From Trichocoleus desertorum ATA4-8-CV12 (GTDB lineage: Bacteria > Cyanobacteriota > Cyanobacteriia > FACHB-46): DNA of 64,000 nt. Where the stretch lies: contig JAHHIL010000003.1 in NCBI GenBank assembly GCA_019358975.1, forward strand, positions 62,001-126,000, read 5' to 3'. How positions within the stretch are numbered: the first letter of the stretch is position 1; the number at the start of each line of letters is the position of its first letter. The position numbers and the translations under genes are program-made. The notes beneath the pieces are model-generated. The model was not told the origin of the DNA. It saw nothing but the letters and a program-made list of their open reading frames with translations, and made no database searches. Positions 19,310-60,623 of the stretch are shown in pieces.

Positions 19310-20281
19310 CTAAGGCTCATCCTGGAGAGCTTTCAAGTCATGCTCCACCATCAATTCCACCATCTCCTGGAAAGAGTGCTGAGGTTTCCAGCCAAGTTTA
19401 TTCTGAATCTTGTCAATACAACCCATGAGCTGCACAGGCTCATCCGGTCGATAAAAGGCTGGATCAACCGAAACATAATCCTGCCAATTGAGATTCACAC
19501 AGCTAAACGCAAACTCAACCAGTTCGCGCACCGAATGCGTTTCACCGCTAGCAATAATGTAGTCATCTGCTTCTTGCTGTTGCAGCATCAACCACATCGC
19601 ATAAACTGCATCTTTGGCATAGCACCAATCCCGCTGAGCATCCAAATTGCCCAGTTTTAGTTCATTCAGCAAGCCCAGTTTAATCATGGCTGCGGCTCGC
19701 GTGATCTTGCGAAAGACAAACTCTGCACCGCGCCGTGGCGATTCGTGGGTATAAGTGATGCCACAGCAGGCGTAGAGCTTGTACTGTTGGCGGTAATTCA
19801 CACTCATCCAGTGAGCGTAAGCCTTAGCCACCCCATAAGGGTTACGAGGTCGAAAAGCAGTACGCTCTGTCTGCGGCGATTCATCCGGTTGCCCAAACAC
19901 CTCACTACTGGAAGCTTGATAGAACCTCGCATCTGGCTTACAACGCCGAATAGATTCTAAAAGCCTAGAAACCCCCAAAGCCGTATATTCAGCCGTTAAA
20001 GAAGGCTGCGTCCAAGACGTAGGAATATAACTCTGAGACGCAAGATTATAGATTTCATCTGGTTGAGCCTCAATAATCGCATCCATCAACGAACACTGAT
20101 CCAGCAAGTCTCCAGACAAAATTTTGATGTCATTAGAGAAATGGCTGATACGACTAGAATTACCCGAACTAGAGCGGCGAACCAAGCCAAAAACTTGATA
20201 TCCCCTAGCTAAAAGTAGCTCCGCAAGATAGGAACCATCTTGTCCGGTGACGCCAGTAATGAGGGCAGATTTAGAAGGCAT
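19310..20281 (-). CDS. gmd: GDP-mannose 4,6-dehydratase
   Basis: Converts GDP-D-mannose to GDP-4-keto-6-deoxymannose, the precursor of GDP-fucose, GDP-rhamnose and related sugars. A 323-residue short-chain dehydrogenase with the NAD(P) motif GVTGQDGSYLAELLL, the conserved QASSSEVFGQP region and the catalytic YGVAKAY (YxxxK). RDWCYAKDAVYAMWLMLQQ also matches the family. ATG at 20281. It is the last gene on the minus-strand side of the polysaccharide locus, 297 bases from the upstream glycosyltransferase. No GDP-fucose synthase or reductase is in the window, so the final sugar is unknown. Confidence 0.95.
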   Translation of the reverse strand: MPSKSALITGVTGQDGSYLAELLLARGYQVFGLVRRSSSGNSSRISHFSNDIKILSGDLLDQCSLMDAIIEAQPDEIYNLASQSYIPTSWTQPSLTAEYTALGVSRLLESIRRCKPDARFYQASSSEVFGQPDESPQTERTAFRPRNPYGVAKAYAHWMSVNYRQQYKLYACCGITYTHESPRRGAEFVFRKITRAAAMIKLGLLNELKLGNLDAQRDWCYAKDAVYAMWLMLQQQEADDYIIASGETHSVRELVEFAFSCVNLNWQDYVSVDPAFYRPDEPVQLMGCIDKIQNKLGWKPQHSFQEMVELMVEHDLKALQDEP

Positions 20282-20578: not shown

Positions 20579-22375
20579 TCAAACCAGTTCAAAGTTACAA
20601 TTCTGTGAAGATAAATTGGGATTGTAGTAAGGATCTTGCTTTAAACCGTTGAATAACTGGCTCCACTTATGATTCAGTTGCTCCCATTCTCCTGGTCTTA
20701 AACCACCTTCCCGGCTCGCAGACTCGTAGTGAACGAGTTGAACAAAAGGAGTAACTACGTTGCGATACCCTGCTTGAACAAGCTTTAAGCAAAAATCTAC
20801 ATCGTTGTAATTGAAAGGAAACCCTTCATCCAGACCATGTACCTGATGAAAGAGTTCCGTTCTGATCATTAAGCAAGCGCCTGTGACAGCTAGGTAATTG
20901 CGGTTAATGATGGTAGAGCAAAAATAGCCAGGATAGTCTGCCTCATAACCGTGGAAGGGGTGACCAGGGTTTCCCTCCAGTATCATGACCCCTGCATGTT
21001 GTATTTTGCCATCGGGAAAAAAGAGCTTAGCACCCACTGCACCAATCTCATCCTGCTGGGCAAGCTCCAGCATTGACTCTAACCAATCTGGTGTGAGGAT
21101 CTCTGTATCATCGTTGAGCAGTAACAAAAACTGCCCTTTTGCTTTAGCTGCTCCTTGATTGATTCTCATGGAGAAGTTAAAGGGTTCAGAACAATGCACA
21201 AAATGAACGTTGGGAGCCGCGATCGCCTTCAAAGTTGATTTAGGAATGTCATACCCATCCACCACAATGACTTCAAAGTTAGTGTAAGTACTCAACTGTT
21301 GAATGCTACGAAGGCAGTTTTCCAGCAAGCACAGGGAACCATTGGCAGTCTCAATCGTTTGCCCAGCACTGGGAATGATAATGCTAATGAGCGGCTGACC
21401 CATAATATTGCGTCGAACCCTAAAAAAACCTGCCCGTGGCCCTGCTTCTACATATCCTGGATATGGACTACGCTCCAACATGGCTTCAAGCGCTTTTTTC
21501 GCCGCGATAAAAGCCCAAGGCTTTGCCTGCTCCCCTGATGTAACAGAGGTAGGGATAATGCGCCAGTGATAAAGAACTTTGGGGATATGATAAATGTTTT
21601 GAGTTTTTTCGACCACTCGCAAGACTAAATCATAATCTTGCGCCCCATCATACTCGCTGCGAAACCCGCCAATATCTCGAATTAAGCCCGTTCGGTAAAC
21701 ACCTAGATGACAAGTATACATACAGCCATGAAAATAGTCTGGTGACCAATCTGGCTTAAAGAAGGGGTCGAGGCGGTTGCCTTTTGTATCTAACTTGTCT
21801 TCATCACTGTAAATAAAATCCGCCTCTGGATGAGCATTAATAAGCTTTGCATTTTCAAACAAAGCATCAATTGCTAATTCATCATCATGATCTAGCAGTG
21901 CAATATAGTCTCCTGTGGCTACTTCTAAAGCTGAGCTGCTGGCAGCGGAGATATTAGCATTTTGGGCTCTGAATACAATTTTTATTCGAGGATCAACCTT
22001 ACTGTAATGAGTGAGAAGAGGCCGCACATGGGATGCCGTAGAAGCATCATCAGCAATACAAAGTTCCCAGTGGTCATAAATCTGGTTACGCACCGATTCA
22101 ATGGCTTTCTGCAACCATCTAGCATCTGTGTTGTAAACTGGCATGATTACAGAAATTTTTGGGCGTAACTGCCAGCAAGTCATTAACTGTTTTGCAGATG
22201 TAATTTCCTGCTGGGTTAGCTTCGTCTTGGCTAACCATTTCTGGTATGAATTTCTACGTTCGAGTCTGGCAACAACACGCTGATATATAAAAATTAAGAG
22301 CTCTTGCGTTCCTTGTTCGCGCCATACACGCTTGAGCTTACGGAGTTTCTCGAAGATAGTCGAAAGATTAGCCAA
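20579..22375 (-). CDS. Large glycosyltransferase with two GT2 domains
   Basis: A 598-residue cytoplasmic glycosyltransferase with two GT-A family 2 domains. The first begins KISVIMPVYNTDARWLQ (about residue 74) and has LLDHDDELA as its DxD-type metal site. The second begins ISIIIPSAGQ (about 330) and has LLNDDTE. Two domains in one chain usually add successive sugars. It strongly resembles the C-terminal half of the upstream 1091-residue protein, so the two are probably paralogues. The start appears to be TTG at 22375; no better ATG exists before the first domain. Part of the ABC-exporter polysaccharide locus. Confidence 0.85.
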   Translation of the reverse strand: MANLSTIFEKLRKLKRVWREQGTQELLIFIYQRVVARLERRNSYQKWLAKTKLTQQEITSAKQLMTCWQLRPKISVIMPVYNTDARWLQKAIESVRNQIYDHWELCIADDASTASHVRPLLTHYSKVDPRIKIVFRAQNANISAASSSALEVATGDYIALLDHDDELAIDALFENAKLINAHPEADFIYSDEDKLDTKGNRLDPFFKPDWSPDYFHGCMYTCHLGVYRTGLIRDIGGFRSEYDGAQDYDLVLRVVEKTQNIYHIPKVLYHWRIIPTSVTSGEQAKPWAFIAAKKALEAMLERSPYPGYVEAGPRAGFFRVRRNIMGQPLISIIIPSAGQTIETANGSLCLLENCLRSIQQLSTYTNFEVIVVDGYDIPKSTLKAIAAPNVHFVHCSEPFNFSMRINQGAAKAKGQFLLLLNDDTEILTPDWLESMLELAQQDEIGAVGAKLFFPDGKIQHAGVMILEGNPGHPFHGYEADYPGYFCSTIINRNYLAVTGACLMIRTELFHQVHGLDEGFPFNYNDVDFCLKLVQAGYRNVVTPFVQLVHYESASREGGLRPGEWEQLNHKWSQLFNGLKQDPYYNPNLSSQNCNFELV

Positions 22376-22450: not shown

Positions 22451-25400
22451 TTATGCTCTGATGCTGTAGTCCTGACTATTTCTCTCCAGATGAGGGCTGT
22501 AGCAAGGATCATGTTCTATGATGTCCGTCCATTTCTTTTGCATGTATTTTACTTCCTTGGCAAATCGAGCTTGCTTTTCAGGTGTATCTTCGTAGCCTCG
22601 GCTCTTTGATTCGTAATGGTAGAGCACCACATGAGGTAAGTAGATATTGCGGTAACCTTGAGCTTCAATTTTGAGGCATAGATCAATGTCATTGAATGCC
22701 ACTGAGAGCTCTTCTTCAAAGCCGCCAACCGCCTCAAACACCTCGCGTCTACACATTAGGCAGGCGGCAGTGACAGCCGAATAGTTATTAACTGTCTGAA
22801 TCTGATTGAAGTAGCCAGGAGCATCATAGGCAAAACGGATATGGCTATGACCCGCGACTCCACCAATGCCGATCACAACTCCAGCATGTTGAATCGTGTC
22901 ATCGGGATATAGCAATAGAGCTCCTACCGCACCAATAGCAGGTCTCTGAACTTGCTCAACCATTGCCGTCAACCAATCGGGGGAGATAACCTCAGTATCA
23001 TTGTTTAAAAAGAGTAGGTAATCTCCTTTTGCTTGAGTGACACCGTAGTTGTTAATGGTGGAGAAGTTAAAGGGAATATCAATTGGACAGCATCGAAACC
23101 TACTAGGTTCTTTTTCGGCCCATTTAGCAAGTACCTGGAGAGTCTCTTCTTCGGTGCTGCCATTGTCTATAACGATGACTTCATAGTTCTTGTAGGAGGT
23201 ATGGGTAAAAATAGAAGCCAGACATTGATCCAAGGTTTCGCCTAAGTTGCGGGTTGGAATCAAGATACTCACTAGCTTAGGATCTTCTATTTCGTACCGA
23301 ACCCTGAAGTGATCTGAGGAGCCAGGTATATCAGTAATACAACCTTTTTCTCCTCTTCTTTCCAACGCTTCTGCTAGAGCTTTTTGGGCTACATGATATG
23401 CATAAGGTTTGGCACTAGAGGCGCTAGCGGTAGAGTCTGAATGGATGCGCCAATGGTACAAAATCTTAGGAATGTGGAAAATTTTGTCGGTTTTTTCAGT
23501 TAGCCTGAGCACCAAATCATAGTCTTGGCTACCTTCATACCCTACTCTAAACCCACCGAGTTCAGTAATTAGCGATCGCCGATAGGTGCCTAAGTGGCAG
23601 GTGTACATTCGAGACAGGAAAGAATCAGGACACCAGTCTGGCTTAAAGTAGGGCTCTTTGAGGGTGTGATCTACCTGAATTTTGTCCTCATCTGAGTAAA
23701 TCATGTCAGCATCAGGCTGCTTGTTGAGTAAAACTGCTACTTCATACAAAGCATCTGGTGTCAGTAGATCATCATGATCTAAAAGTGCGATAAACTCTCC
23801 AGTTGCTACCTCTAGGGCAGAGTTAGAAGCATGAGAGATATGACCGTTTTCTTCTCTAAAAACAATCTTAATCCGCGAATCTGCTTCTGCGTAGGACTGT
23901 AGAACTGGTTTAATGTGAGGTTGAGTCGAGGCATCATCGGCAACGCACAATTCCCAGTAAGGATAAACCTGGTTAATCACCGACTCTATTGCCTCGCGCA
24001 AGAAGGCTTCAGGTGTATTAAAAACTGGCATTACAATACTAAAGACTGGTTTGTAGCCCAGAACTGGAACTATATCAGCCATTTTTCGAAGGTCAGCTTC
24101 TCTGGGATAGTTTTGGTTTAGCCATTTTTGATATTTGACATCCTCCGTCCGAGGAACTCCCATTAGATTTTGGTAGCTACTTGCTGCTGAGGGAGTTGTC
24201 TCTTGTAATACCTCAACTGGCGGTACTTCAATCTGAATCGAGCCAGTGGTCTGCTCGAATGACTCAGCCAGCAGACGTGTGGGTTGTTCAGCTTTGGAAC
24301 TCGTCAATAAGCCTTTGACTTTGGATGAAAAATAGCTAGGATGCAAGCTAATACCTTGTGCTAACCCAAGAGCCTCTCTAACTCTGAACCATCGCGATCG
24401 CACTTTCCAAAACTTACTACTTTCCATAGCAGCAATCGTGTTTTGAAAGTCTTGGCTCATTTGAGCTTGTTGAAGGTGCGATCGCTCTAGTTCTGCTTGG
24501 GTAAGGTGCAACTGAAACTGTAATTGAGCGAGTTGTGCCTGAGCCCCTTGTAGCTCTTGTTGTAGTTCTTGGAATTGCGATTGCGATCGCCTCCGAGTTA
24601 GGTGTAACTGAGACTGCGATCGCTCTAGTTCTGTTTGAGTCTCATGCAGTTGAGACTGCGATCGCTCTAGTTCTGTTTGAGTCTCATGCAATTGAGACTG
24701 CGATCGCTCTAGTTCTGTTTGAGTCTCATGCAATTGAGACTGCGATCGCTCTAGTTCTGTTTGAGTCTCATGCAGTTGAGACTGCGATCGCTCTAGTTCT
24801 GCTTGAGTCTCATGCAGTTGAGACTGCGATCGCTCTAGTTCTGTTTGAGTCTCATGCAGTTGAGACTGCGATCGCTCTAGTTCTGTTTGAGTCTCATGCA
24901 GTTGAGACTGCGATCGCTCTAGTTCTGCTTGAGTCTCATGCAGTTGAGACTGCGATCGCTTCGATTCCTGCTGAAGCCTAAAGAAACGCTCATTCAGTGC
25001 AGCATATTTCTCTTCTAAGCTAACAGGAAAGGCTTTGACTATAAATTGCAAAACTTCAGCATTTTCATCTAGTTCAATTTCTTTAACTAGATCGTCATTA
25101 AATTCATTTTTATCAATATTTGGAATTAAAGGATTATTTGAGAAAATATTTAGCGTGGTGCAATCAATAGCTTCAAGACAATACCCTGATCTATCAAATA
25201 GCTTTTCAATGGTATTTCTTGTAAAGAATCTTAAGTGCGTGTTGTCTAAAATCCCTAATTTTGTGTACTCAAATCGCCCTTGCAACAAAGCTAGCCGAAT
25301 TGCTCCATGAGCAATATTTGGAATCGAGGCTACTACATATCCTTCTTGCTTCAAGAGCTGGTTAGTCTCTTTTAATACCTTCCAAGGATTACGAAGATGT

Positions 25401-25726
25401 TCCAAAACATCTCCAAATATGGCAACATCAAATTCCTGGTTTTTTAGAATTTCAGTAACAGATACAAAATCCAGGTCGGCAACAATTACCTCCTTGCAAT
25501 GTTGTTCAGCAATCTTGGCAGCATCTGCGTTAATTTCTACCCCTGTAACAGTACAACCTCTCCTATTGAGCAGTTGAGCAAGATAACCAGTTGCACAACC
25601 AAAATCTACTACTTGCTTGTTTTCCCCAACTAAGCGGAGCATTTTCTTTAAGCTATGATTTTCATCAAGCGCCTCTTCCGTAATCTCTTCTGCTAATGGG
25701 TAATCTTTTTGCCAATTTTTATCCAT
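22451..25726 (-). CDS. Methyltransferase - repeat coiled coil - double GT2 fusion protein
   Basis: A 1091-residue multi-domain protein. Residues ~1-230 form a SAM methyltransferase (VVDFGCATGYLAQLL, then VAIFGDVLEHLRNP). Residues ~235-430 form a long coiled coil, including eight near-identical 14-residue units (RSQSQLHETQTELE). Residues ~555-800 and ~805-1085 form two GT2 domains (FSIVMPVFNTPEAF, LLDHDDLL; SILIPTRNLG, FLNNDTEV). This layout resembles chain-modifying enzymes of ABC-exported glycans, where a methyltransferase with a coiled coil caps chains and measures their length; that parallel is inference. ATG at 25726, 14 bases after the ABC ATPase gene. Confidence 0.85.
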   Translation of the reverse strand: MDKNWQKDYPLAEEITEEALDENHSLKKMLRLVGENKQVVDFGCATGYLAQLLNRRGCTVTGVEINADAAKIAEQHCKEVIVADLDFVSVTEILKNQEFDVAIFGDVLEHLRNPWKVLKETNQLLKQEGYVVASIPNIAHGAIRLALLQGRFEYTKLGILDNTHLRFFTRNTIEKLFDRSGYCLEAIDCTTLNIFSNNPLIPNIDKNEFNDDLVKEIELDENAEVLQFIVKAFPVSLEEKYAALNERFFRLQQESKRSQSQLHETQAELERSQSQLHETQTELERSQSQLHETQTELERSQSQLHETQAELERSQSQLHETQTELERSQSQLHETQTELERSQSQLHETQTELERSQSQLHETQTELERSQSQLHLTRRRSQSQFQELQQELQGAQAQLAQLQFQLHLTQAELERSHLQQAQMSQDFQNTIAAMESSKFWKVRSRWFRVREALGLAQGISLHPSYFSSKVKGLLTSSKAEQPTRLLAESFEQTTGSIQIEVPPVEVLQETTPSAASSYQNLMGVPRTEDVKYQKWLNQNYPREADLRKMADIVPVLGYKPVFSIVMPVFNTPEAFLREAIESVINQVYPYWELCVADDASTQPHIKPVLQSYAEADSRIKIVFREENGHISHASNSALEVATGEFIALLDHDDLLTPDALYEVAVLLNKQPDADMIYSDEDKIQVDHTLKEPYFKPDWCPDSFLSRMYTCHLGTYRRSLITELGGFRVGYEGSQDYDLVLRLTEKTDKIFHIPKILYHWRIHSDSTASASSAKPYAYHVAQKALAEALERRGEKGCITDIPGSSDHFRVRYEIEDPKLVSILIPTRNLGETLDQCLASIFTHTSYKNYEVIVIDNGSTEEETLQVLAKWAEKEPSRFRCCPIDIPFNFSTINNYGVTQAKGDYLLFLNNDTEVISPDWLTAMVEQVQRPAIGAVGALLLYPDDTIQHAGVVIGIGGVAGHSHIRFAYDAPGYFNQIQTVNNYSAVTAACLMCRREVFEAVGGFEEELSVAFNDIDLCLKIEAQGYRNIYLPHVVLYHYESKSRGYEDTPEKQARFAKEVKYMQKKWTDIIEHDPCYSPHLERNSQDYSIRA
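24617..24954 (-). repeat. 42-bp tandem coding repeat, eight units, each with GCGATCGC
   Basis: About eight 42-base units run in tandem inside the fusion protein gene, each holding one HIP1 octamer. They encode two heptads per unit (RSQSQLHETQ[TA]ELE). Units differ at only a few bases, indicating recent expansion. The copy number is likely to vary and may be mis-assembled in short-read data. Confidence 0.9.
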
Positions 25727-25740
25727 GATATTGCTACTAT

Positions 25741-27087
25741 TTATGCTGGCGTTCTTACTATTGATGAAGCTGGTTTGTTCACTTTCACAACCATTGGTTG
25801 ATCAACTAAAGCATGGATACGCCTTCCTGTATCTGGAGGCAAGACTTGAAAGACTAATGCATTATCAATCCAATCAAAAGTCAAAGATTCATAACTTTCT
25901 GATCCAGCCACTGTTAAGCTGTACGAACCTGTTCTTAAGGGTAGATTGAATTTAAATTGAATTTCTAACAATTCCCCTGGCTCTAATCTGCTGATTGGAG
26001 TATTTTCCTCAAATGTATTGCTGCCAATCACCTCATTGCCATTCTTATCACACACATAAAAACCAACAATACAACTCCTAAGCGGAGCATAAACCCTTAA
26101 CCTTGTAAACAAGGTTACTTCCTCGTTGAACCCAAAAATGGGGCTTTCACCTGCATTTTCACCTAAATGATTTAGCAGCTTGATCTCTTCAATTAAAGCC
26201 TTGCAGTTTCCTCGCCGTGAAAGTTTGCCAGAGGATTGCTGCCCAGATAGAGCCTCATCATTAGTCTGTATTGGAGGCTCTTCCTGAACAGCTATGACCT
26301 TACTTGCTTCATGGTTGGTTTGAGACTCTCCACCTACCTGGGTTAGACCTAGCTCCAACTCGGTAACTAGTTTCAGGTATTCGATGATGATTGTGTTTGG
26401 CAGTCCTAAAGCCTGTATTCGCCCGTCGTGAATCATGACAGCTTGATTGCACAGGGTTTTGATGGCTCCTGAATCGTGTGAAACAAATAGCGTTGTTACG
26501 CCTGAGTCCATCAAGGTTCGCATCCGGCGCATACAACGATGCTGAAATACTACATCTCCTACAGCCAAAGCTTCATCAACGATCAAAATCTCTGGATTAA
26601 CATTGACTGCCACGGCAAATGCTAAACGGACAAACATACCGCTTGAATAGGTCCTAACAGGTTGGTCGATGAACTCACCAATATCTGCAAACCCAGCAAT
26701 CTCGTCAAACTTATCTTCGATTTCCCTTTGGCTTAACCCTAGTAGCCGCCCATTGAAAAATACATTCTGTCGTCCCGTAAACTCTGGGTTAAACCCACTA
26801 CCTAGTTCCAGCAGTGCCGAAATTCTTCCATTTACCCTGATTTCTCCAGTAGTGGGAGTTAAGGTTCCTGCAACTATTTGTAGTAGCGTACTCTTCCCAG
26901 AGCCATTCCTTCCAACGAAACCAACTGTTTGCCCTTTGGGAATTTCTAGGTTTATATCACGTAACGCCCAGAACTCATCTGCCCTACTTTTTCCGGGCAA
27001 CAATATTTCCTTAAGCCTCTCTACCGGGTGAGCATAGCGCCTAAAGCATTTCGAAACATTGTTTAACGCAATTGCAATCTCACTCAT
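25741..27087 (-). CDS. Polysaccharide ABC exporter ATPase (Wzt-like)
   Basis: The nucleotide-binding subunit of an exporter for lipid-linked glycan or O-antigen chains. Walker A is GRNGSGKST, the signature is TYSSGMFVRLAFA and Walker B is ILIVDEALAVGD, followed by the H-loop in LFVSHDSG. The C-terminal ~150 residues (after about 290) form a beta-sandwich like the carbohydrate-binding Wzt domain, which reads the chain end before export. ATG at 27087 is preferred over an upstream TTG at 27105. It lies between its permease and the fusion glycosyltransferase gene. Confidence 0.9.
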   Translation of the reverse strand: MSEIAIALNNVSKCFRRYAHPVERLKEILLPGKSRADEFWALRDINLEIPKGQTVGFVGRNGSGKSTLLQIVAGTLTPTTGEIRVNGRISALLELGSGFNPEFTGRQNVFFNGRLLGLSQREIEDKFDEIAGFADIGEFIDQPVRTYSSGMFVRLAFAVAVNVNPEILIVDEALAVGDVVFQHRCMRRMRTLMDSGVTTLFVSHDSGAIKTLCNQAVMIHDGRIQALGLPNTIIIEYLKLVTELELGLTQVGGESQTNHEASKVIAVQEEPPIQTNDEALSGQQSSGKLSRRGNCKALIEEIKLLNHLGENAGESPIFGFNEEVTLFTRLRVYAPLRSCIVGFYVCDKNGNEVIGSNTFEENTPISRLEPGELLEIQFKFNLPLRTGSYSLTVAGSESYESLTFDWIDNALVFQVLPPDTGRRIHALVDQPMVVKVNKPASSIVRTPA

Positions 27088-27108
27088 CTCACCACTACTA
27101 AGCAATAT

Positions 27109-27996
27109 CTAAAGGACATCAGCGAAAGCGGGACGTATACGCTTGTAAACCCACAAACCACCCAGAAATATTAATAGGGAAACCACTGAAGCGACTCCCA
27201 ACTCACCCCAGTGGGTTACTTCTCCAACTAAGATAAGATCCCGGTAAACTTCTGAGATCGCGGTTAAGGGGTTCAACCAGAAAACCCAAGCTCGCCATTG
27301 TTCTGGGATGATAGAGGCTGGATAAATAATGGGAGTTACATAGAACCAAAGGTTGAGAATAACTCCTAGGGTTTGAGGAATGTCTCGTAAAAAAACTGTC
27401 AATCCTGCAAATATGTACCCTAACCCCGCAGTTAGCAGCAATTGCGGCAGCCAAACCAGCGGCAAGAGCCATAACGTGGTGTGTATTGTTTGAGAGGTTA
27501 GGGCCACAAGCAGGATCAAGGCCATCAGACCAAAGGTACTCTCCAAAAAGAGCGATAGAACTGGAACAAGTGGCAGTAAAGTGAGGGGAAACACAACCTT
27601 CTTAACCAGATTGGGCTGTGCAATGACGGATGACGCGGCTTGGATAACTCCACTAGAAAAGGCTATCCAGGGCAACAATCCTGCAAACAACCACAAGCCA
27701 TACGTTAGATTGTTGTCGGGTAGCCCTTGAAGGCTAAGCTTGACCTTAAGAACAATCGAGAAAACGTAAGTGTAAATGAGTAACTGGGAAATTTGATTCA
27801 GTAAAGGCCATAAGTTGCCTAGGACAGAACCTTTGTACCGCGCTTCCATATCTCGCTGCACAAGTGCTTTGAGCAGATCTAGCTTGGCCCACCACCTAGG
27901 ATTGATTGGTAGCCAACGAGCCAGGTTATTAACTCGGCGGACTACTCCTCTCATTGGTCTCAGCAACTTGCACGTCCTCACCCACTGCTTACACAC
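27109..27996 (-). CDS. Polysaccharide ABC exporter permease (Wzm-like)
   Basis: A 295-residue inner-membrane subunit of the ABC-2 type with about six membrane helices. It has the family N-terminal signature (LLKALVQRDMEARYKGSVLGNLWPLLNQ, read in segments) and a late helix with FYVTPIIYPAS. It pairs with the downstream ATPase to move glycan across the plasma membrane. The start is GTG at 27996; an ATG 14 codons inside (27954) is an alternative. It is the first gene of the minus-strand cluster. Confidence 0.9.
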   Translation of the reverse strand: MCKQWVRTCKLLRPMRGVVRRVNNLARWLPINPRWWAKLDLLKALVQRDMEARYKGSVLGNLWPLLNQISQLLIYTYVFSIVLKVKLSLQGLPDNNLTYGLWLFAGLLPWIAFSSGVIQAASSVIAQPNLVKKVVFPLTLLPLVPVLSLFLESTFGLMALILLVALTSQTIHTTLWLLPLVWLPQLLLTAGLGYIFAGLTVFLRDIPQTLGVILNLWFYVTPIIYPASIIPEQWRAWVFWLNPLTAISEVYRDLILVGEVTHWGELGVASVVSLLIFLGGLWVYKRIRPAFADVL

Positions 27997-44301: not shown

Positions 44302-45115
44302 CGTCTGTAGCTCCCACGCACTAATTGATTTGGGCCTTGCGCCATTTTTAGAGCGTAGACTTACCTGCTCTAGATAGCAAGAAAAAATCTAGACTTAAAT
44401 TATTTTTATACCGTAAACCTACCGAGCTGAGCAGACAGAGTGAAAGAAGCGCTAGCTATGGGCTCAAGAAACCGTTGTATCAAAAACTACAGCTTATTAT
44501 GTTAAGTTGTTGTACTTATGTTCAATCGGCTAAGTAATTCTAAGGATGACAGAGCTTCACCAAAAATTTAGATTTGTTTCGTTAGTGTAAAGTTGACTCC
44601 AAAAAGTGTGAAATCAGTCAGAATAGTGCTGAATTACCAGGGTGCTGAAGTAATATCCGTTATCTTGAAAGCCGTTGGGCTAGAACAGCGGCCTTCCTTC
44701 TTTCAGTTGTGTGTTCTCTGAATAATGATCACCCTTGATCACGCGAATTCTGTTAGCAATAACGTCTACCCGTTCGCGCCGAACGATTGCTGATAATCCG
44801 AGTCCAGTCGTAAGGTTAAGTCGCTAATGATGATGTTCGATTGTTGATGGAATTTTTGGTTTAAGTTTTTTCTACTCAAATTTAGGCGATCGCCCTAACT
44901 CAGGTTTGCTTTAACAGCTACATTAGTCTCCGTTTTTACAGTTTATGGAGGCTCTGTTCCTGCTGACTTTAATTTTGGAACTGTGCTCTATCCAGCTCAT
45001 TAAGCATCCCTGTAAGCTTGGCTCAGACAATATTTTGGGCTGACAAAATTCATTCACACTGCTTTGGAACTCAGCTTTGCCTAACTCCACGCGACATCGT
45101 AGAGGAGGCAATTCG
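44302..45115. other. Intergenic region upstream of the glucanase gene
   Basis: About 810 bases with no convincing gene. It contains a hairpin with T-rich tail near 44671-44702, the repeat TGATCACCCTTGATCA near 44727-44741, and a compound inverted repeat at 44755-44791 (separate entry). Promoters for the PCP_red gene (minus) and the glucanase (plus) should be here. Confidence 0.45.
44755..44791. promoter_or_regulatory. Compound inverted repeat, possible structured leader
   Basis: AGCAAT and ATTGCT enclose a second, GC-rich palindrome CGTTCGCGCCGAACG, about 325 bases upstream of the glucanase start. It may fold as part of a long 5' leader or small RNA, or serve as an operator. No known RNA family is recognised. 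Confidence 0.3.
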
Positions 45116-46936
45116 GTGGCACGTCAAACGACACTGCAACAGCAATCTGCTCAAAGCCAGCATGTGGCTCAGAATTCCCGCACCGCTCGCTTTTGGCGAC
45201 CTTTTTATCGAGGAGCTTTTGTACTTTCGCTCTTTGGTCTCACTTTGCAGACAGGTGCAATGCCCAATGCCGCAGCAGCGACGAATGTTCAACTGCCGCT
45301 ATCTACGAAAGGAGCCAGAATCATTGATGCGAGCGGTCAGCCAGTCCTGTTACGGGGCATCAATTGGTTTGGCATCGAAACTGAGACCCATGCTCCGCAT
45401 GGTTTGTGGGCACGAGACTATAAGGAGATGCTGGCCCAAATCAAAGACCAAGGCTATAACTTAATTCGGCTACCTTATTCAGTGGAATCGTTGCGATCGA
45501 GTACTGTGCAAGGCGTTGATTTCAGCATTGGAAGTAATAGCGATCTGCAAGGCAAAACTCCCCTGCAAGTGATGGATTTGGTGATTCAAGAAGCCAATCG
45601 TCAAGGACTGTTGGTGCTGCTTGACAGTCATCGGCTCAACGATCAAAAAATTCCTGAACTTTGGTATGGGGATGGCTTTACAGAAGCGGACTGGATCGAT
45701 ACTTGGAAAATGCTGGCGACCCGCTATAAGAACCAGTCCAATGTCATTGGGGCAGACCTGAAAAACGAACCCCACGGTCGGGCCAGTTGGGGCACGGATG
45801 ATCCCGCAACTGATTGGCGTCTGGCGGCAGAACGAGCAGGTAAAGCGATTCAGGCGATCGCCCCTCACTGGTTAATTGTGGTGGAGGGCGTCGAGAAAAA
45901 TGTACCGGGGCAAAAGCTTCCCTACCATTGGTGGGGCGCTAACTTGGAAGGGGTCAAGAAAGACCCAGTGCGCTTACCTGTAGCCAACAAGCTGGTTTAT
46001 TCTCCCCACGAGTATGGTCCTGGCGTCCTTGACCAAAGCTGGTTCTCTGATCCAGCCTTTCCCAATAACCTGAAAGCTCGTTGGGAAACTGGATTTCATT
46101 ACATTGCGACCCAAGGGATCGCGCCCATTTTGGTGGGAGAGTTTGGCGGTCGTCAAGTTGATAGCACCTCAAAAGAGGGGATTTGGCAACGCAAGTTCGT
46201 GGAATTTATTAACCAGAAAAACCTCAGCTTTACCTATTGGAGTTGGAATCCTAACAGTGCTGATACAGGCGGCATCTTGCAAGATGATTGGCGTACCGTC
46301 AGTCCAGCTAAGCAACAACTTTTAGGCCCATTGCTCTCCTTAGCGAGTGGTGTGGTGGGTTCTACTATAAATCAGATTGACAGCACGATTTCTAGCCCTA
46401 TCCCCATTCCTGCTCCTATTCCCATTCCTGCTCCAACTCCTAGCCCAACTCCTGATCCCACGCCTGCACCCAGTCCAACTCCAACACCTAGTCCTGATCC
46501 CACGCCTGCACCCAGTCCGACTCCAACACCTAGTCCTGATCCCACGCCTACACCCAGTCCAACTCCAACTCCTGATCCCGCACCCAATCCAGCTCCTGAT
46601 CCCACGCCTGCTCCTGCTCCTACGCCAACTACTTCGACGCAACTAAAAGCAGAAGCCATTATGCAATCCGAGTGGGCTTCTGGATTCTGTACTAATCTGC
46701 GGGTCACTAACCCAGGTACGACGAATAGTAGCTCTAACTGGCAAGTGACTTTTCAAATGAATCAAGCCGCGATCGCAAATAGCTGGAATGGCAACTTTAG
46801 GAAGCAAACCACGGGCTATGTAGCGACTGCTCCAGGTTGGGCTAAGGTCATCGCCCCCAATAAAACCGTGGAGATGGGTTTCTGCGCTGACAAACTTGGC
46901 ACCGACTATAAGCCAACCCAAGTAGTAATCGAATAA
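45116..46936 (+). CDS. Secreted GH5 endoglucanase with CBM2
   Basis: A 606-residue secreted cellulase-type enzyme. A long N-terminal charged region and hydrophobic segment form the export signal. The GH5 domain (~60-420) has the acid/base glutamate in KNEPHG (E218) and the nucleophile in VGEFGG (E342). A Pro/Thr/Ser/Asp linker with degenerate P-x repeats (~422-506) leads to a C-terminal CBM2-like cellulose-binding module with two cysteines ([17 protein letters not shown]). The GTG at 45116 has AGGAGG seven bases upstream and is far better than the TTG at 45077. It may act on cellulose from outside or on the cell's own exopolysaccharide. Confidence 0.9.
46383..46635 (+). repeat. Proline-rich linker-coding repeats of the glucanase
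   Basis: Short direct repeats such as CCCAGTCCAACTCCAACA and variants encode alternating Pro with Thr, Ser, Asp or Ala. Near-identical units of about 48 bases occur at least twice. Such regions commonly change length by slippage or unequal crossing-over. Confidence 0.8.
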
Positions 46937-48190: not shown

Positions 48191-49264
48191 CTAAAGATAT
48201 TGCTGCAAAATTTCTGCGGTCGCCTGTCCCGTTTTTGTCCAGCTAAACTGTGTAGCTCTGGCTAACCCACGTTGGCGTAGTTGCGATCGCAAGTTTGCAT
48301 CTGTCGCGATCGCCTGCATTGCCTCTGTAAGTTCTTCTACCTGGTAAGGGTTCACCAAAAGAGCAGCATCACCCGCTACTTCTGGTAAAGAAGCCAGATT
48401 GGAGGTAATCACGGGAGTTCCACAGGCCATTGCCTCCAATACAGGCAGACCAAATCCTTCCCAGAGGCTCGGGAAAACTAGGGCGATCGCTTGATTGAGC
48501 AACTTGGGTAACTCTGTATAAGGCACATAATTGAGAAACTTCACCTGCTGTTGTAATCTTAGTGCTGCAATTTGTGCTTGCAGCGCCGGGGTGTAGCGTG
48601 GATCAGAGGGGCCAGCAAACCACAATTCATAGGCCGAGCAATTAGGTAAGGCGGCAAAAGCTGACACTAAACGCTGAGGGTTTTTGTGCGGATTATGACG
48701 ACCCAAATAAAGGAAATAATTTTTTTGGGGTAACTGCAAATCGCGAAAATTATTAGCATCATAAGCGAGTGGAATGGCAGTCACTTTTTTGCTAGAAATG
48801 CCACAAACAGTGACTACATCTTGGACAGTTGCTTGCGAATTGCAAATAATATACTCTGCCTGCCTTAATACAGCGGGAATGTAGTAGTGACAATAAAGCT
48901 TCTGCGCTTGAGAAAACCATTGAGGAAAGTGCAAAGGAATCAAATCATGAATCGTAACGATCGCTCGACAGCTTTTCGAGAGAGGTGCTTCTGGTATAGG
49001 AGAAAATAGTAATTTAGAATGTAAATCCTGATAAATTTTGGGTAAATAAAACTGAGTCCAGAGTAATCGCTTGAGATGTCCTTTAGCTCCAGCCTCTGTT
49101 GTTAAGTCAACCGGAGATGGATAAGTTTTTATATTATCTTTTAGCAGTATTGGGCTTACTGCCTGCATTTCTGCAAGGGGTAACGATTTGAGCAAATTAA
49201 GGCTATAAGTTGCCCAGCCTGTCGGTCTTTCAGGTAAAAAGGCTAGATTAATCAGAACTGACAT
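48191..49264 (-). CDS. Glycosyltransferase family 4
   Basis: A 357-residue GT-B glycosyltransferase. The C-terminal half has [20 protein letters not shown] and the E-x7-E donor-binding motif in [22 protein letters not shown]. It transfers a sugar from a nucleotide donor in the cytoplasm; specificity is unknown. It is the last gene of the minus-strand rml-GT operon and overlaps the upstream GT2 gene by 17 bases. ATG at 49264. Confidence 0.9.
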
Positions 49265-50180
49265 TGAGACTTGATTTGGGTTTCAATCCTAAAGGATATT
49301 GCTTAAAGTCGAATAACAATAGAATGATTTTTTTAAATGTAGGGTTTAAAGTTTTTAGAAAGAGTCCTGAAAACTTAATTAAGAGATAGATTCTGAGTAA
49401 TAACTGTTCAACTGAAGGTCGGTGCTTTTGATAGTAATAAAGTTGGCTTCTCCGGTACTCAATCGCCATCGCATCAGCTCGTTGGCTCACGGAATGCCCA
49501 TGCAGGTGAATGAGAGCAGTCTTAGGAGTGTAGAGAATTTTCCAGCCTAGGTGGCGCGATCGCTGGCATAGATCCGACTCTTCGAAGTACATAAAGAATT
49601 TTTCATCAAATCCGCCCAAGCTATCAAATAATTCTTTTCTAACAAAAATTGCTGCTCCAATTACAATTTCAACTTCCTGAATAGTTTGAAACTGCTGGCA
49701 GATTGATACCTGATGTTGAGGGTTTTGATACTTTTTCAGTTGTTGCTGAGCGTGATATTCTCCTCGCAATCCGATCGCAGGAACTACAGAAATCTGTAAA
49801 GTTCTATTGGGGTTGAGGAGCTGGGGTCCAATTATGCCAACGTCGGGGCGAGTTCGGATCAACTCTACCAAGTGCGGCAACGGATCACAAATTAGGACAG
49901 TATCGGTATTTAGCAAAAACAAAAAACTTCCCTTAGCTGCTTTTGCTCCTACATTATTACCTGTACCAAAGCCTAAGTTTGTAGCTTGTTGAATTAGGCG
50001 AACTTGAGAAAATTTCTGTGCGACTAATTCTGAACTGCCATCAGTAGAAGCATTATCCACCACAATCACTTCGTAAGAAGTTGAATGAATAAATTTTTCA
50101 ATTGAATTTAAGCAGTCTAAGATAACTCCTGCACCATTGTAGTTAACTAAAATAATTGAGACTAAAATATCTTTTTGCAT
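49248..50180 (-). CDS. Glycosyltransferase family 2
   Basis: A 310-residue GT-A enzyme beginning VSIILVNYNGAGVILDCLNS, with VVDNASTDGS and LLNTDTV as donor and metal-binding segments, similar to rhamnosyltransferases of the WbbL type. GGFDEKFFMYFEESDLC fits that group. Given the rmlACD genes in the same operon, it may use dTDP-rhamnose (inference). ATG at 50180. It sits 22 bases after the previous gene and overlaps the next. Confidence 0.9.
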   Translation of the reverse strand: MQKDILVSIILVNYNGAGVILDCLNSIEKFIHSTSYEVIVVDNASTDGSSELVAQKFSQVRLIQQATNLGFGTGNNVGAKAAKGSFLFLLNTDTVLICDPLPHLVELIRTRPDVGIIGPQLLNPNRTLQISVVPAIGLRGEYHAQQQLKKYQNPQHQVSICQQFQTIQEVEIVIGAAIFVRKELFDSLGGFDEKFFMYFEESDLCQRSRHLGWKILYTPKTALIHLHGHSVSQRADAMAIEYRRSQLYYYQKHRPSVEQLLLRIYLLIKFSGLFLKTLNPTFKKIILLLFDFKQYPLGLKPKSSLNVSSD

Positions 50181-50202
50181 CAGTCAAAAAGCATTCTTCA
50201 CT

Positions 50203-51237
50203 CTAACTAGCCTTCAATGATTTAAAGGTCAACTTCTGACGTAATTTCTTCAAGTCAAACAATACTTTCAAGGCCCAGATCCTGAAAGCAATTCCCTCGG
50301 AGCCGTAACCTGTTTGCCAACTTTGCCAACCCAAGCGGAGAATGCCTAGACCAAAGTCCAAGTGGCGATCGCTAAACGGATCTCGCCATTGCGGATTGAC
50401 TTGCTGGTGAAAGCGCAGATAAAAAGCCTGGCTCAAATTCCGATGAATGAGGTAACTTTTGCCTGTGATTCGGCATTTCTTAGTGAACCAAACGATTAAT
50501 TCTCGGTAGAACTTACCCGCGTCTCTAACTACCCCAATGGTGTTAGAGCCATGAATTCTGTACCGGACTAAAGGTTGCCGTATATGGGCCACTTGGCCTA
50601 ACTGTGCTGCCACGATCGCTACCCAAACGTCGTGGTACCACTGCACCTCAGCTTGGGGCGGAAACGGTAGCACCGAGGGCAATAGGGTTGCACAGAAGAC
50701 TAGCGAGCAGCCTGTAACTGTGTTCCGTAAGAGCAATAACTCAGCGGTAAGTTTTTCAGGATGGCGGCTCTCAAACTCCCAAGCGGAAGCGTGCAAGGTG
50801 CGATCGCTACCATCAATCAGTTCTAAGTCGGAATGTACCAACAGCGCTTTCTCGCTTCGCAGCGTTTCTATCGATACCTCCAGCTTATGGGGTTGCCAAA
50901 TATCGTCTTGGTCGGCAAAGGCGATCGCACTAACAGTGGGGTCAGCAGCGACATACTGCAAGCCCCGCTCGAAGTTGTGATAGGCATTGAGATTTTGCGT
51001 ATGAAAATGGCAGATAAAGCGATCGTCTTGGCTCACCAAGTCTCGAATCATTTGTTGTGATTCAGGTTGAGAGCAATCATCCACAATATGACAAACCCAA
51101 TTTTGCCAAGTTTGGCTTTGGATAGATGCAATTTGCTGACGAAAATAGTGCGGATTAGGGTTGTAAGTGGCCAAAACAATCCCAATTCGCTCTTGACTCA
51201 GCATGTGATCATTAGGCCAATTCAATTTGGCAGTCAT
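50203..51237 (-). CDS. Glycosyltransferase family 2
   Basis: A 344-residue GT-A enzyme with IGIVLATYNPNPHYFRQQI at the start, HIVDDCSQ and the DQDDIW motif typical of rhamnosyltransferase-like GT2 proteins. The C-terminal half is a family extension. The ATG at 51237 overlaps rmlA by 26 bases; an ATG 11 codons inside (51204) would leave an eight-base gap. Which is used is unclear. Confidence 0.88.
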   Translation of the reverse strand: MTAKLNWPNDHMLSQERIGIVLATYNPNPHYFRQQIASIQSQTWQNWVCHIVDDCSQPESQQMIRDLVSQDDRFICHFHTQNLNAYHNFERGLQYVAADPTVSAIAFADQDDIWQPHKLEVSIETLRSEKALLVHSDLELIDGSDRTLHASAWEFESRHPEKLTAELLLLRNTVTGCSLVFCATLLPSVLPFPPQAEVQWYHDVWVAIVAAQLGQVAHIRQPLVRYRIHGSNTIGVVRDAGKFYRELIVWFTKKCRITGKSYLIHRNLSQAFYLRFHQQVNPQWRDPFSDRHLDFGLGILRLGWQSWQTGYGSEGIAFRIWALKVLFDLKKLRQKLTFKSLKAS

Positions 51238-52285
51238 CCCCCACCATAAATCTCAAGGCTTTGGGCCGACGGGGATGCACGGTTAAGCAAGCATTGCGAC
51301 CAATCACACTATCCACAATGCGCTGATGAATATTGACGACTTTAGCGCCACGCAAAATCACACTATGGTCAATGTCCGTGTCAATCAGCGTCACTTGATC
51401 GCCAATGCTGCTGTAAGGCCCAATAAAGCAATTTTCTAAATGACAGTTTTGCCCAATGATCACAGGGCCACGCACCGTACAGTTAATCAGTTGCGAACCT
51501 CCGCCAATTGCTACCCTGCCACTCACCTGTGACTGAGCATCAACTTCGCCCACAATTTGAGGATTCACGTAGCTGTCGAGAATAATTTGATTGGCGGCAA
51601 GCAAATCATCTTTTTTTCCAGTGTCTAGCCACCAACCCAACAGTTGAGTCGCTTGCACATTGCGTTGCTGATCGATCAAGTACTGAATGGCATCTGTGAT
51701 CTCCAGTTCTCCCCGCGCGGACGGTTGGATATTGTCGATCGCATGATGAATCACAGGTGAGAAGAAGTAGACTCCCACCAAAGCCAAATCAGAGGGGGGG
51801 TGCTGGGGCTTCTCAATCAAGCGCATGATCCGTCCATCCTCCGCCACCTCTGCCACCCCAAAGGCGCTAGGGTTCTTCACCGATCGCAGGAGAATCAAGG
51901 CATCTAGGTCTTGCTGGGTGAACTTCTCTAAAAATTGCTCTAGGCTATCTTGGATCAGGTTGTCGCCCAGGTACATGATGAAGGGCGAATCTCCCAAGAA
52001 GGGTTGAGCTATTTTGACGGCATGAGCTAGCCCTGCGGGTTGGTCTTGCTGAATATAGGTAATCTTGGCTCCAAAGCGATCGCCATCCCCCGTCCTAACC
52101 TTCACTTCTTCCCCAGTTTCCGGGCTAATGATGATGCCAATGTCGGTGATGCCAGCAGCAACAATGCCCTCGATCCCATACCAAAGAATGGGTTTGTTCG
52201 CGACGGGCACTAATTGTTTGGCTCCCGTATAGGTGAGTGGTCGTAGCCTTGTCCCTTTACCCCCGGAGAGAATCAGTGCTTTCAT
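51212..52285 (-). CDS. rmlA: Glucose-1-phosphate thymidylyltransferase, long form
   Basis: Makes dTDP-glucose from glucose-1-phosphate and dTTP, the first step to dTDP-rhamnose. A 357-residue long-form enzyme: nucleotidyl domain with LSGGKGTRLRPLTYTGAKQL and YLGDN, followed by a left-handed beta-helix of hexapeptide repeats. It overlaps rmlD by 29 bases. The long form is common in cyanobacteria and actinobacteria-type clusters. ATG at 52285. Confidence 0.93.
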   Translation of the reverse strand: MKALILSGGKGTRLRPLTYTGAKQLVPVANKPILWYGIEGIVAAGITDIGIIISPETGEEVKVRTGDGDRFGAKITYIQQDQPAGLAHAVKIAQPFLGDSPFIMYLGDNLIQDSLEQFLEKFTQQDLDALILLRSVKNPSAFGVAEVAEDGRIMRLIEKPQHPPSDLALVGVYFFSPVIHHAIDNIQPSARGELEITDAIQYLIDQQRNVQATQLLGWWLDTGKKDDLLAANQIILDSYVNPQIVGEVDAQSQVSGRVAIGGGSQLINCTVRGPVIIGQNCHLENCFIGPYSSIGDQVTLIDTDIDHSVILRGAKVVNIHQRIVDSVIGRNACLTVHPRRPKALRFMVGDDCQIELA

Positions 52286-53165
52286 GGGTTTGAGTATAAA
52301 GTTCCGCTAGCATATGTTTGAGTCCTTGTCGCCAGTGAGGAGGATAAGTTCCCAGAACTCCCGCTATTTTGGCACAAGAGAGAACTGAGTAAGCTGGACG
52401 CTGGGCAGGTGTGGGGTAGTCGGCAGTCGTGATCGGCACCACTCGTTGAATTTTGAGGGGAAAGCCTAGTTGTTTGGCTTCTTCGAAAATGGCAATAGCA
52501 AAGTCATACCAGCTGGCAACACCGCTATTGGTGTAATGGTAAATGCCTGTAGTTTTTGAGCTGGCGTGGGGGATAAACTGAGCGATCGCTTGAGCTAAAT
52601 CCTTGGCCCAAGTGGGACTTCCAATTTGATCGGCCACTACTCGAATTTCTTCGCGTTCTGCTCCCAAGCGCAGCATGGTTTTCACAAAATTGCTTTTGCC
52701 ATAGCTACCGTAAACCCAAGCAGTTCTGATCACGGCATAGTTGGCGGTACTCAGCGCGATCGCCGTTTCCCCCATCAGTTTAGATTTGCCATAGGCTCCC
52801 AGCGGATTGGTCGCATCCGTTTCTCCGTAAGGATGGCTTTGGGTGCCGTCAAACACATAATCGGTCGAGATGTGAATGAAAAAAGCGCCTAAGCGTTGTG
52901 CGGTTTCCGCTAAAACCTGGGTAGCAGTTGCATTCACTGCGATCGCTTGCTCTAATTCAGTTTCGGCTTTATCGACCGCTGTGTAAGCAGCCGCATTCAC
53001 GATTATGTCTGGCTGTAGCTTTTCTACTACCTGAAGAATTTGTTCAGGATGGGCTAAGTCTAAAGCGTCCCGTCCGAAGCTTGTGACCTCTCCACCAGGG
53101 GTGAGGCAGGTCTGTAGCTCTTGTCCAACTTGACCGTTAGCCCCAGTGACTAAAATCCGTTTCAT
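52257..53165 (-). CDS. rmlD: dTDP-4-dehydrorhamnose reductase
   Basis: The final step to dTDP-L-rhamnose, using NADPH. A 302-residue SDR with the glycine-rich motif VTGANGQVGQEL, FIHISTDYVFDG and the YGKSKLMGE catalytic region (YxxxK). ATG at 53165 overlaps the stop of rmlC by four bases, so translation is coupled. rmlB, the dehydratase step, is not in this window. Confidence 0.94.
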   Translation of the reverse strand: MKRILVTGANGQVGQELQTCLTPGGEVTSFGRDALDLAHPEQILQVVEKLQPDIIVNAAAYTAVDKAETELEQAIAVNATATQVLAETAQRLGAFFIHISTDYVFDGTQSHPYGETDATNPLGAYGKSKLMGETAIALSTANYAVIRTAWVYGSYGKSNFVKTMLRLGAEREEIRVVADQIGSPTWAKDLAQAIAQFIPHASSKTTGIYHYTNSGVASWYDFAIAIFEEAKQLGFPLKIQRVVPITTADYPTPAQRPAYSVLSCAKIAGVLGTYPPHWRQGLKHMLAELYTQTHESTDSLRG

Positions 53166-60555: not shown

Positions 60556-60623
60556 GTTGCGGATCTTGGGTTGCGGATCTTGGGTTGCGGATTACTTGGT
60601 TGCGGATTTTGGGTGCCGATTTT
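60556..60623. repeat. Tandem repeat after glk
   Basis: The unit GTTGCGGATCTTGG, about 14 bases, recurs roughly four to five times with changes, 20 bases after the glk stop. It is non-coding and resembles the short tandem arrays frequent in cyanobacterial intergenic DNA. It separates glk from the convergent small membrane protein gene. Confidence 0.75.

What the first reader, a model, noticed from the sequence alone, without database searches (positions are those of the whole stretch)
24617..24954. HIP1-bearing 42-bp repeat expanded inside a glycan enzyme
Eight near-identical 42-base units each contain one GCGATCGC and encode two coiled-coil heptads. The expansion lengthens the coiled coil between a methyltransferase and two GT2 domains. 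In ABC-exported O-antigen systems a coiled coil acts as a chain-length ruler, so repeat number could tune glycan length and change by recombination. The ruler role is inference.
Basis: partly seen in the sequence, partly recalled or inferred. Interest (0 to 1): 0.6.

Follow-up and report, generated by a model that had tools for sequence, protein, structure and literature searches.

The report
Repeat-built spacer in sugar-chain enzyme
A cyanobacterial enzyme that builds and probably caps a surface sugar chain holds its two working ends apart with a long coil made largely of eight almost identical 42-base repeats; in related cyanobacteria this coil has grown and shrunk by whole repeats many times, which probably, though not yet proven, changes how long the sugar chains become.

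Summary
The array is real: 8.4 copies of a 42-bp unit at 24609-24960 (98% match), nine GCGATCGC sites at exact 42-bp spacing, inside one 1091-aa minus-strand gene (22451-25726): class I methyltransferase, ~200-residue helix, short SKFWxxR motif, two GT2 domains. The eight full units differ at only two positions, so the expansion is recent or recently homogenised. Wzm and Wzt (with Wzt_C domain) lie directly upstream; a dual-GT2 gene and a GDP-mannose dehydratase gene lie downstream. This is the architecture of known polymerase-terminators of ABC-exported glycans (WsaE, K. pneumoniae O7 ORF6), where the coil is a chain-length ruler in the tested cases (WbdD, WbbB). Copy number is not constant in relatives: 53 distinct cyanobacterial homologues have coils of 67-227 residues, 21 carry their own 21/42/63/84/105-bp arrays, and close pairs differ by single clean gaps of 21, 42 or 126 bp. 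Heptad phase is kept, but a control coil shows this too; the arrays are absent from that control (0/30 versus 21/53). HIP1 is a passenger: most arrays lack it. That coil length sets glycan length here remains inference (about 0.6). Within-species polymorphism could not be tested; the genome is a draft.

The parts
24609..24960 (-). tandem array, 8.4 copies of a 42-bp unit; eight full units at 24623-24958 encode RSQSQLHETQ(T/A)ELE; nine HIP1 sites
22451..25726 (-). 1091-aa MT-coil-GT2-GT2 protein (probable glycan polymerase-terminator)
   Evidence: ORF; Pfam; AlphaFold
25022..25726 (-). class I SAM methyltransferase domain (aa 1-235)
   Evidence: Pfam Methyltransf_23 8.7e-23; Foldseek 3cc8 E 1.3e-18
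24425..25030 (-). long helix / coiled coil (aa 233-434, about 201 residues), including older degenerate units at 24425-24608
   Evidence: heptad column analysis; predicted helix 237-435
24583..24623 (-). array edge: HIP1 spacing drops from 42 to 33 bp (11 aa, a hendecad-type discontinuity); predicted helix break at aa 371-373 nearby
24371..24418 (-). conserved S[KT]FWxxRxxW motif (aa 437-452), end of the coil module; C-terminus in stand-alone homologues
   Evidence: S437 F439 W440 R443 W446 invariant in 18 aligned proteins
23567..24040 (-). first GT2 domain (aa 563-720)
   Evidence: PF00535; dual GT-A polymerases are top fold hits
22601..23281 (-). second GT2 domain (aa 816-1042)
   Evidence: PF13641/PF10111
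25741..27105 (-). Wzt, ABC-transporter ATPase with C-terminal Wzt_C domain
   Evidence: PF00005 3.7e-23, PF14524 8.1e-30
27109..27996 (-). Wzm, ABC-2 membrane component
   Evidence: PF01061 2.5e-22
20579..22375 (-). second dual-GT2 protein, 49% identical to the GT part of the first
19310..20281 (-). GDP-mannose 4,6-dehydratase-type enzyme
   Evidence: PF16363 4.2e-119; TIGR01472 388 bits against a cut-off of 415

Best explanation
The gene encodes a one-chain polymerase-terminator of an ABC-exported surface glycan. The two C-terminal GT2 domains polymerise (inferred); the N-terminal methyltransferase caps the non-reducing end (inferred); Wzt's C-terminal domain recognises the cap for export through Wzm (inferred from O9a and WsaE). 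The coil holds the capping domain a fixed distance from the polymerising domains, so only chains long enough to reach it are capped. Each 42-bp unit adds 14 residues, about 2.1 nm of helix; the eight units supply about 17 nm of a coil of about 30 nm. Tandem duplication or deletion of units (slippage or unequal recombination) changes the ruler in whole heptads without breaking frame or coil register. Shown: array, architecture, synteny, whole-unit length changes between species. Inferred: oligomeric coil, capping, ruler effect.
For: Domains and predicted continuous helix. wzm-wzt-(MT-coil) synteny: Wzt detected in 47 of 55 cyanobacterial loci, with Wzt_C-type domain in 41 (counted from its table). 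Same architecture as characterised terminators: WsaE (PMC2943079), K. pneumoniae O7 ORF6 (PMC11231755); coil insertions/truncations shift modal O-antigen length in WbdD (PMC5082667). Coil length in 53 distinct homologues runs from 67 to 227 aa; in the first 44 its sd was 41 aa against 0.8 aa for the methyltransferase core; 21 carry their own arrays, with strong periods of 21, 42, 63, 84 or 105 bp. Close pairs differ by single gaps of 126, 42 and 21 bp; all 15 length differences among pairs at 80% or more MT identity are multiples of 7 aa. At least 10 changes of array state on the MT tree. An unrelated conserved coil (DUF3084-type) has 0/30 arrays versus 21/53, Fisher P 1.4e-5.
Against: No glycan-length data. 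Heptad phase-locking also appears in the control coil, so it shows a real continuous coil, not a ruler. Many clades keep one coil length (seven Calothrix-type sequences at 95 aa), so variation is not fast everywhere. WsaE methylation in vitro was independent of chain length (PMC2943079). The coil core is Leu at one position but Ser/Thr at the other, which may be a weak oligomer. The C-terminal motif is not more amphipathic than shuffles. Draft genome of 90 contigs: the copy number may be wrong.
Confidence: 0.6

Rival explanations
1. Neutral slippage in a tolerant spacer: Gln-rich coil DNA expands by slippage, any whole-heptad change is tolerated, and glycan length is set elsewhere or is insensitive to coil length.
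For: Heptad conservation is generic to coils. Arrays are Gln-rich and low-complexity, inherently slippage-prone. Several clades keep constant length without arrays.
Against: Arrays are absent from a control coil of similar length, though that coil has another composition. In tested homologous systems coil length does change chain length (PMC5082667, PMC11231755).
Confidence: 0.27
2. The coil mainly oligomerises or tethers the polymerase complex (scaffold), with length only loosely important.
For: MT-coil occurs as a stand-alone protein ending after the SKFW motif as well as fused to different GT types, as expected of a recruitment module.
Against: Large and repeated length changes are not expected of a pure oligomerisation domain; the wzm-wzt-terminator context matches known rulers.
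Confidence: 0.08
3. HIP1-driven array: HIP1 is a recombination site that creates and shuffles the repeat.
For: Nine HIP1 at 42-bp spacing here; HIP1-bearing arrays also in L068, L152, L175; HIP1 has been linked to site-specific recombination in some cyanobacteria (PMC4390886).
Against: Arrays of similar size without HIP1: L059 (8.7 copies), L105 (13.9), L054 (7.5), L160 (8.9); L106 has one HIP1 in 8.8 copies. HIP1 is common in the window anyway (124 sites); in this frame it simply reads Arg-Ser.
Confidence: 0.04
4. Assembly artefact: copy number inflated or collapsed by short-read assembly.
For: Draft of 90 contigs; array of about 350 bp.
Against: The reading frame is open through the array and unit variants are ordered; similar arrays occur in finished single-contig genomes such as L061/L107 (3.3 copies) and L175 (11.4 copies).
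Confidence: 0.03

Closest known systems
WsaE of Geobacillus stearothermophilus (S-layer glycan, PMC2943079)
   Same: One protein with an N-terminal methyltransferase and two C-terminal glycosyltransferase domains; gene directly after wzm-wzt; methyl cap proposed as stop signal
   Different: The review describes no coil ruler or repeat array for WsaE; its methylation was chain-length independent in vitro. No direct sequence comparison with WsaE was made here.
K. pneumoniae O7 ORF6 (PMC11231755)
   Same: MT, coiled coil, two GT2 modules, with wzm/wzt; terminator with coil as ruler; the paper mentions cyanobacterial orthologues, fused or not to GT modules
   Different: O7 ORF6 has an added kinase-type domain and a carbohydrate-binding domain before the coil; here the coil follows the methyltransferase directly. 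No tandem arrays are mentioned in the passages read.
WbdD of E. coli O9a / K. pneumoniae O3 and O5 (PMC3482155, PMC5082667, PMC11231755)
   Same: MT at the far end of a long coil; ruler function demonstrated by coil insertions and truncations; ABC export
   Different: O9a/O3 WbdD has a kinase; the polymerase WbdA is a separate protein; MT similarity here is only that of class I methyltransferases in general
WbbB of K. pneumoniae O12 (described in PMC11231755)
   Same: Polymerase and terminator on one chain with a coil ruler
   Different: Terminator is a Kdo transferase, not a methyltransferase

Membership tests
Coiled-coil polymerase-terminator of ABC-exported glycans (WsaE / O7 ORF6 type) | terminating enzyme domain, long coil and polymerising GT modules on one chain | tested here: met
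   Pfam; predicted helix 237-435; dual GT-A polymerases as top fold hits
Coiled-coil polymerase-terminator of ABC-exported glycans (WsaE / O7 ORF6 type) | gene adjacent to wzm-wzt, Wzt with C-terminal glycan-binding domain | tested here: met
   PF01061, PF00005, PF14524; conserved in most relatives
Coiled-coil polymerase-terminator of ABC-exported glycans (WsaE / O7 ORF6 type) | terminal capping activity and control of chain length by the coil | not testable with these tools
   needs enzyme assay and glycan sizing
WbdD (O9a type) | kinase domain between methyltransferase and coil | tested here: not met
   no such Pfam match; helix begins at aa 237 right after the methyltransferase
WbdD (O9a type) | specific sequence relationship of the methyltransferase to WbdD | tested here: inconclusive
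   WbdD is one of many class I methyltransferases hit, E about 6e-6, far behind 3cc8 at 1.6e-46
WbdD (O9a type) | C-terminal membrane-associated amphipathic helix recruiting the polymerase | tested here: inconclusive
   conserved SKFWxxRxxW helix present but hydrophobic moment not above shuffles
Variable-number tandem repeat locus | near-identical in-frame tandem units with copy number differing between close relatives | tested here: met
   gaps of exactly 126, 42 and 21 bp between close species; own closest relatives are only about 75% identical in the MT, so this is shown for the family, not for this strain
Variable-number tandem repeat locus | polymorphism within one species or culture | not testable with these tools
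   only one genome per species held

The most novel reading that the evidence does not exclude
The coil is an evolvable, possibly population-variable ruler: tandem-unit slippage acts as a quantitative contingency locus that steps surface-glycan length by about 2 nm of coil per unit, giving graded rather than on/off variation of the cell surface, used repeatedly and independently across cyanobacteria.
Probability: 0.2. Interest if true: 0.78.

Novelty: new variant of a known kind. Interest (0 to 1): 0.52.

Why it matters
Coil rulers are known from engineered insertions and truncations in enteric bacteria. Here is a natural series of homologous coils from 67 to 227 residues, changed in whole heptads by visible DNA repeat events, some between close species. 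That makes the ruler idea testable as natural variation: plot glycan length against coil length. If it holds, it would show a quantitative, slippage-tuned way of changing the cell surface, which in cyanobacteria bears on grazing (O-antigen impairment gives grazing resistance in S. elongatus, reference 32 as cited in PMC4390846).

Tried and rejected
HIP1 as cause: rejected as necessary, since most arrays lack it. Heptad phase-lock as ruler-specific evidence: withdrawn after the control coil showed the same behaviour. SKFW tail as demonstrated amphipathic membrane helix: hydrophobic moment no better than shuffles. Fused proteins having longer coils: medians 158 vs 116, Mann-Whitney P 0.0006, but only four independent supported pairs and no significance after phylogeny. 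Single-sequence scan of genome contigs found nothing; the alignment-based one worked. Microcystis genus for copy-number polymorphism: only one of 12 genomes has the gene. Paralogous arrays in the own genome: only unrelated coils. Non-cyanobacterial relatives: no strong arrays except a Methanotrichaceae contig (L124, 168-bp unit) and a short one in L137. Literature search for natural repeat-number variation in such coils found nothing; the library is incomplete.

Full report
OBSERVATION. Tandem Repeats Finder reports 24609-24960, period 42, 8.4 copies, 98% matches, score 676. The sequence shows it directly. GCGATCGC occurs at 24616 and then every 42 bp to 24952, nine times; the window as a whole has 124 such sites against 0.72 expected, so HIP1 is a genome feature, and its regular spacing here follows from copying of the unit. 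In coding direction (minus strand) eight full units at 24958-24623 read RSQSQLHETQ(T/A)ELE; only two of 42 columns vary, in the pattern A B B A B C C B, so the units are young or homogenised; the partial ninth unit already differs at 17-19 positions.

THE GENE. The array lies in a 1091-aa ORF, 22451-25726 minus. Pfam finds a methyltransferase (aa 33-182), then two GT2 domains (563-720, 816-1042). AlphaFold of the first 519 aa gives a confident methyltransferase fold and then one long helix, 237-435 with a three-residue break at 371-373, close to the point where the HIP1 spacing drops to 33 bp (11 aa); confidence falls below 50 in part of the repeat, and a monomer model says nothing on oligomers. 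Foldseek: methyltransferase closest to 3cc8; the GT pair resembles dual GT-A polymerases such as chondroitin polymerase and heparosan synthase. One heptad position is Leu throughout and the one three residues on is Ser/Thr.

THE LOCUS. Same strand, in order: Wzm (27109-27996), Wzt with Wzt_C domain (25741-27105), this gene, a second dual-GT2 protein (20579-22375), and a GDP-mannose dehydratase-type gene (19310-20281). rmlA and rmlD for dTDP-rhamnose are also in the window.

RELATIVES. Searches found the methyltransferase-coil module in 14 of 390 genomes of the class, in 45 of 218 of one family and in about 55 named cyanobacterial loci. It is either stand-alone, ending about 25 aa after a conserved SKFWxxRxxW motif, or fused to GT domains. 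Wzt is found in 47 of 55 loci with flanks, usually directly upstream, and 41 of these have the Wzt_C-type domain (counted from the table).

LENGTH EVOLUTION. Measured between two conserved anchors in 53 distinct proteins, the coil is 67-227 aa (own 201); over the first 44 the sd was 41 aa against 0.8 aa for the methyltransferase core. Length modulo 7 equals 4 in 43 of 53, and in 26 of 35 clusters at 85% identity (binomial P 2e-15). Own length gives 5 and others 1, which fits one or two hendecad-type shifts (inference). Closest pairs differ by single gaps: 126 bp (L168/L174, MT 91% identical), 42 bp (L061/L103, 90%), 21 bp (L076/L084, 95%); all 15 differing pairs at 80% or more MT identity differ by multiples of 7 aa. 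Strong arrays have periods of 21, 42, 63, 84 or 105 bp. Array presence changes at least 10 times on the methyltransferase tree. Units from different species are 62% identical at the median, against 98% inside this array. Arithmetic: taking seven units away from this coil leaves 103 aa, near the commonest stand-alone lengths of 95 and 102.

CONTROL. A DUF3084-type protein with a coil of similar length was taken from 30 genomes: its lengths also keep heptad classes (4, 1, 5), so the phase-lock is a general property of coils; but none had an array, against 21 of 53 (Fisher P 1.4e-5), and its length sd was 16 aa. The two samples differ in taxonomic spread, and related sequences are counted, so the P value is a guide only. 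What is special here is the array-driven swing in length, not the heptad rule.

HIP1. HIP1-bearing arrays occur here and in L068, L152 and L175, but arrays as large lack it. In this reading frame HIP1 gives Arg-Ser inside the coil motif. I take it as a passenger.

FUNCTION. In known ABC-exported glycans a coil separates a terminator from the polymerase and its length sets chain length; insertions and truncations in WbdD shift the modal length (PMC5082667; PMC11231755). WsaE has the same MT-GT-GT layout beside wzm-wzt (PMC2943079), and O7 ORF6 the MT-coil-GT2-GT2 layout with additional domains. By analogy this protein polymerises, caps and measures. It is not WbdD: the kinase is absent and the methyltransferase is no closer to WbdD than to many others. 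The ruler effect is not shown here, and WsaE methylation in vitro did not depend on chain length.

LIMITS. One genome per species, so no within-species test; draft assembly of 90 contigs; no glycan data; literature library incomplete.

Noticed in passing
51212-53165 (minus): rmlA and rmlD (dTDP-rhamnose synthesis), with GT2 and GT4-like genes at 48191-51237: a second glycan locus near the first.
   Followed up: partly
46397-46626: 42/24-bp tandem repeats coding a Pro-rich linker ([14 protein letters not shown]) in a probable secreted glycoside hydrolase, ORF 45077-46936.
   Followed up: no
55822-55864: 12-bp repeat coding LESQ in a hybrid histidine kinase (54355-56625).
   Followed up: no
60556-60621: 14-bp intergenic repeats GTTGCGGATCTTGG just after a glucokinase-like gene.
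   Followed up: no
L052 / L073: In a Thermosynechococcaceae genome the coil is cut short by two copies of a 63-bp unit (KSVRGRSFESTVDPAACREL) of another kind, so the module looks broken or altered there.
   Followed up: no
L065, L066, L093, L099, L100, L117: Wzt without the C-terminal domain although the methyltransferase-coil module is kept: a cap without the usual cap reader.
   Followed up: no
L124: A Methanotrichaceae archaeal contig has a related methyltransferase followed by a coil with a 168-bp near-duplicate, a possible parallel case in archaea.
   Followed up: no
20579-22375 (minus): Second dual-GT2 protein 49% identical to the GT half of the main protein, likely an old duplication.
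   Followed up: no
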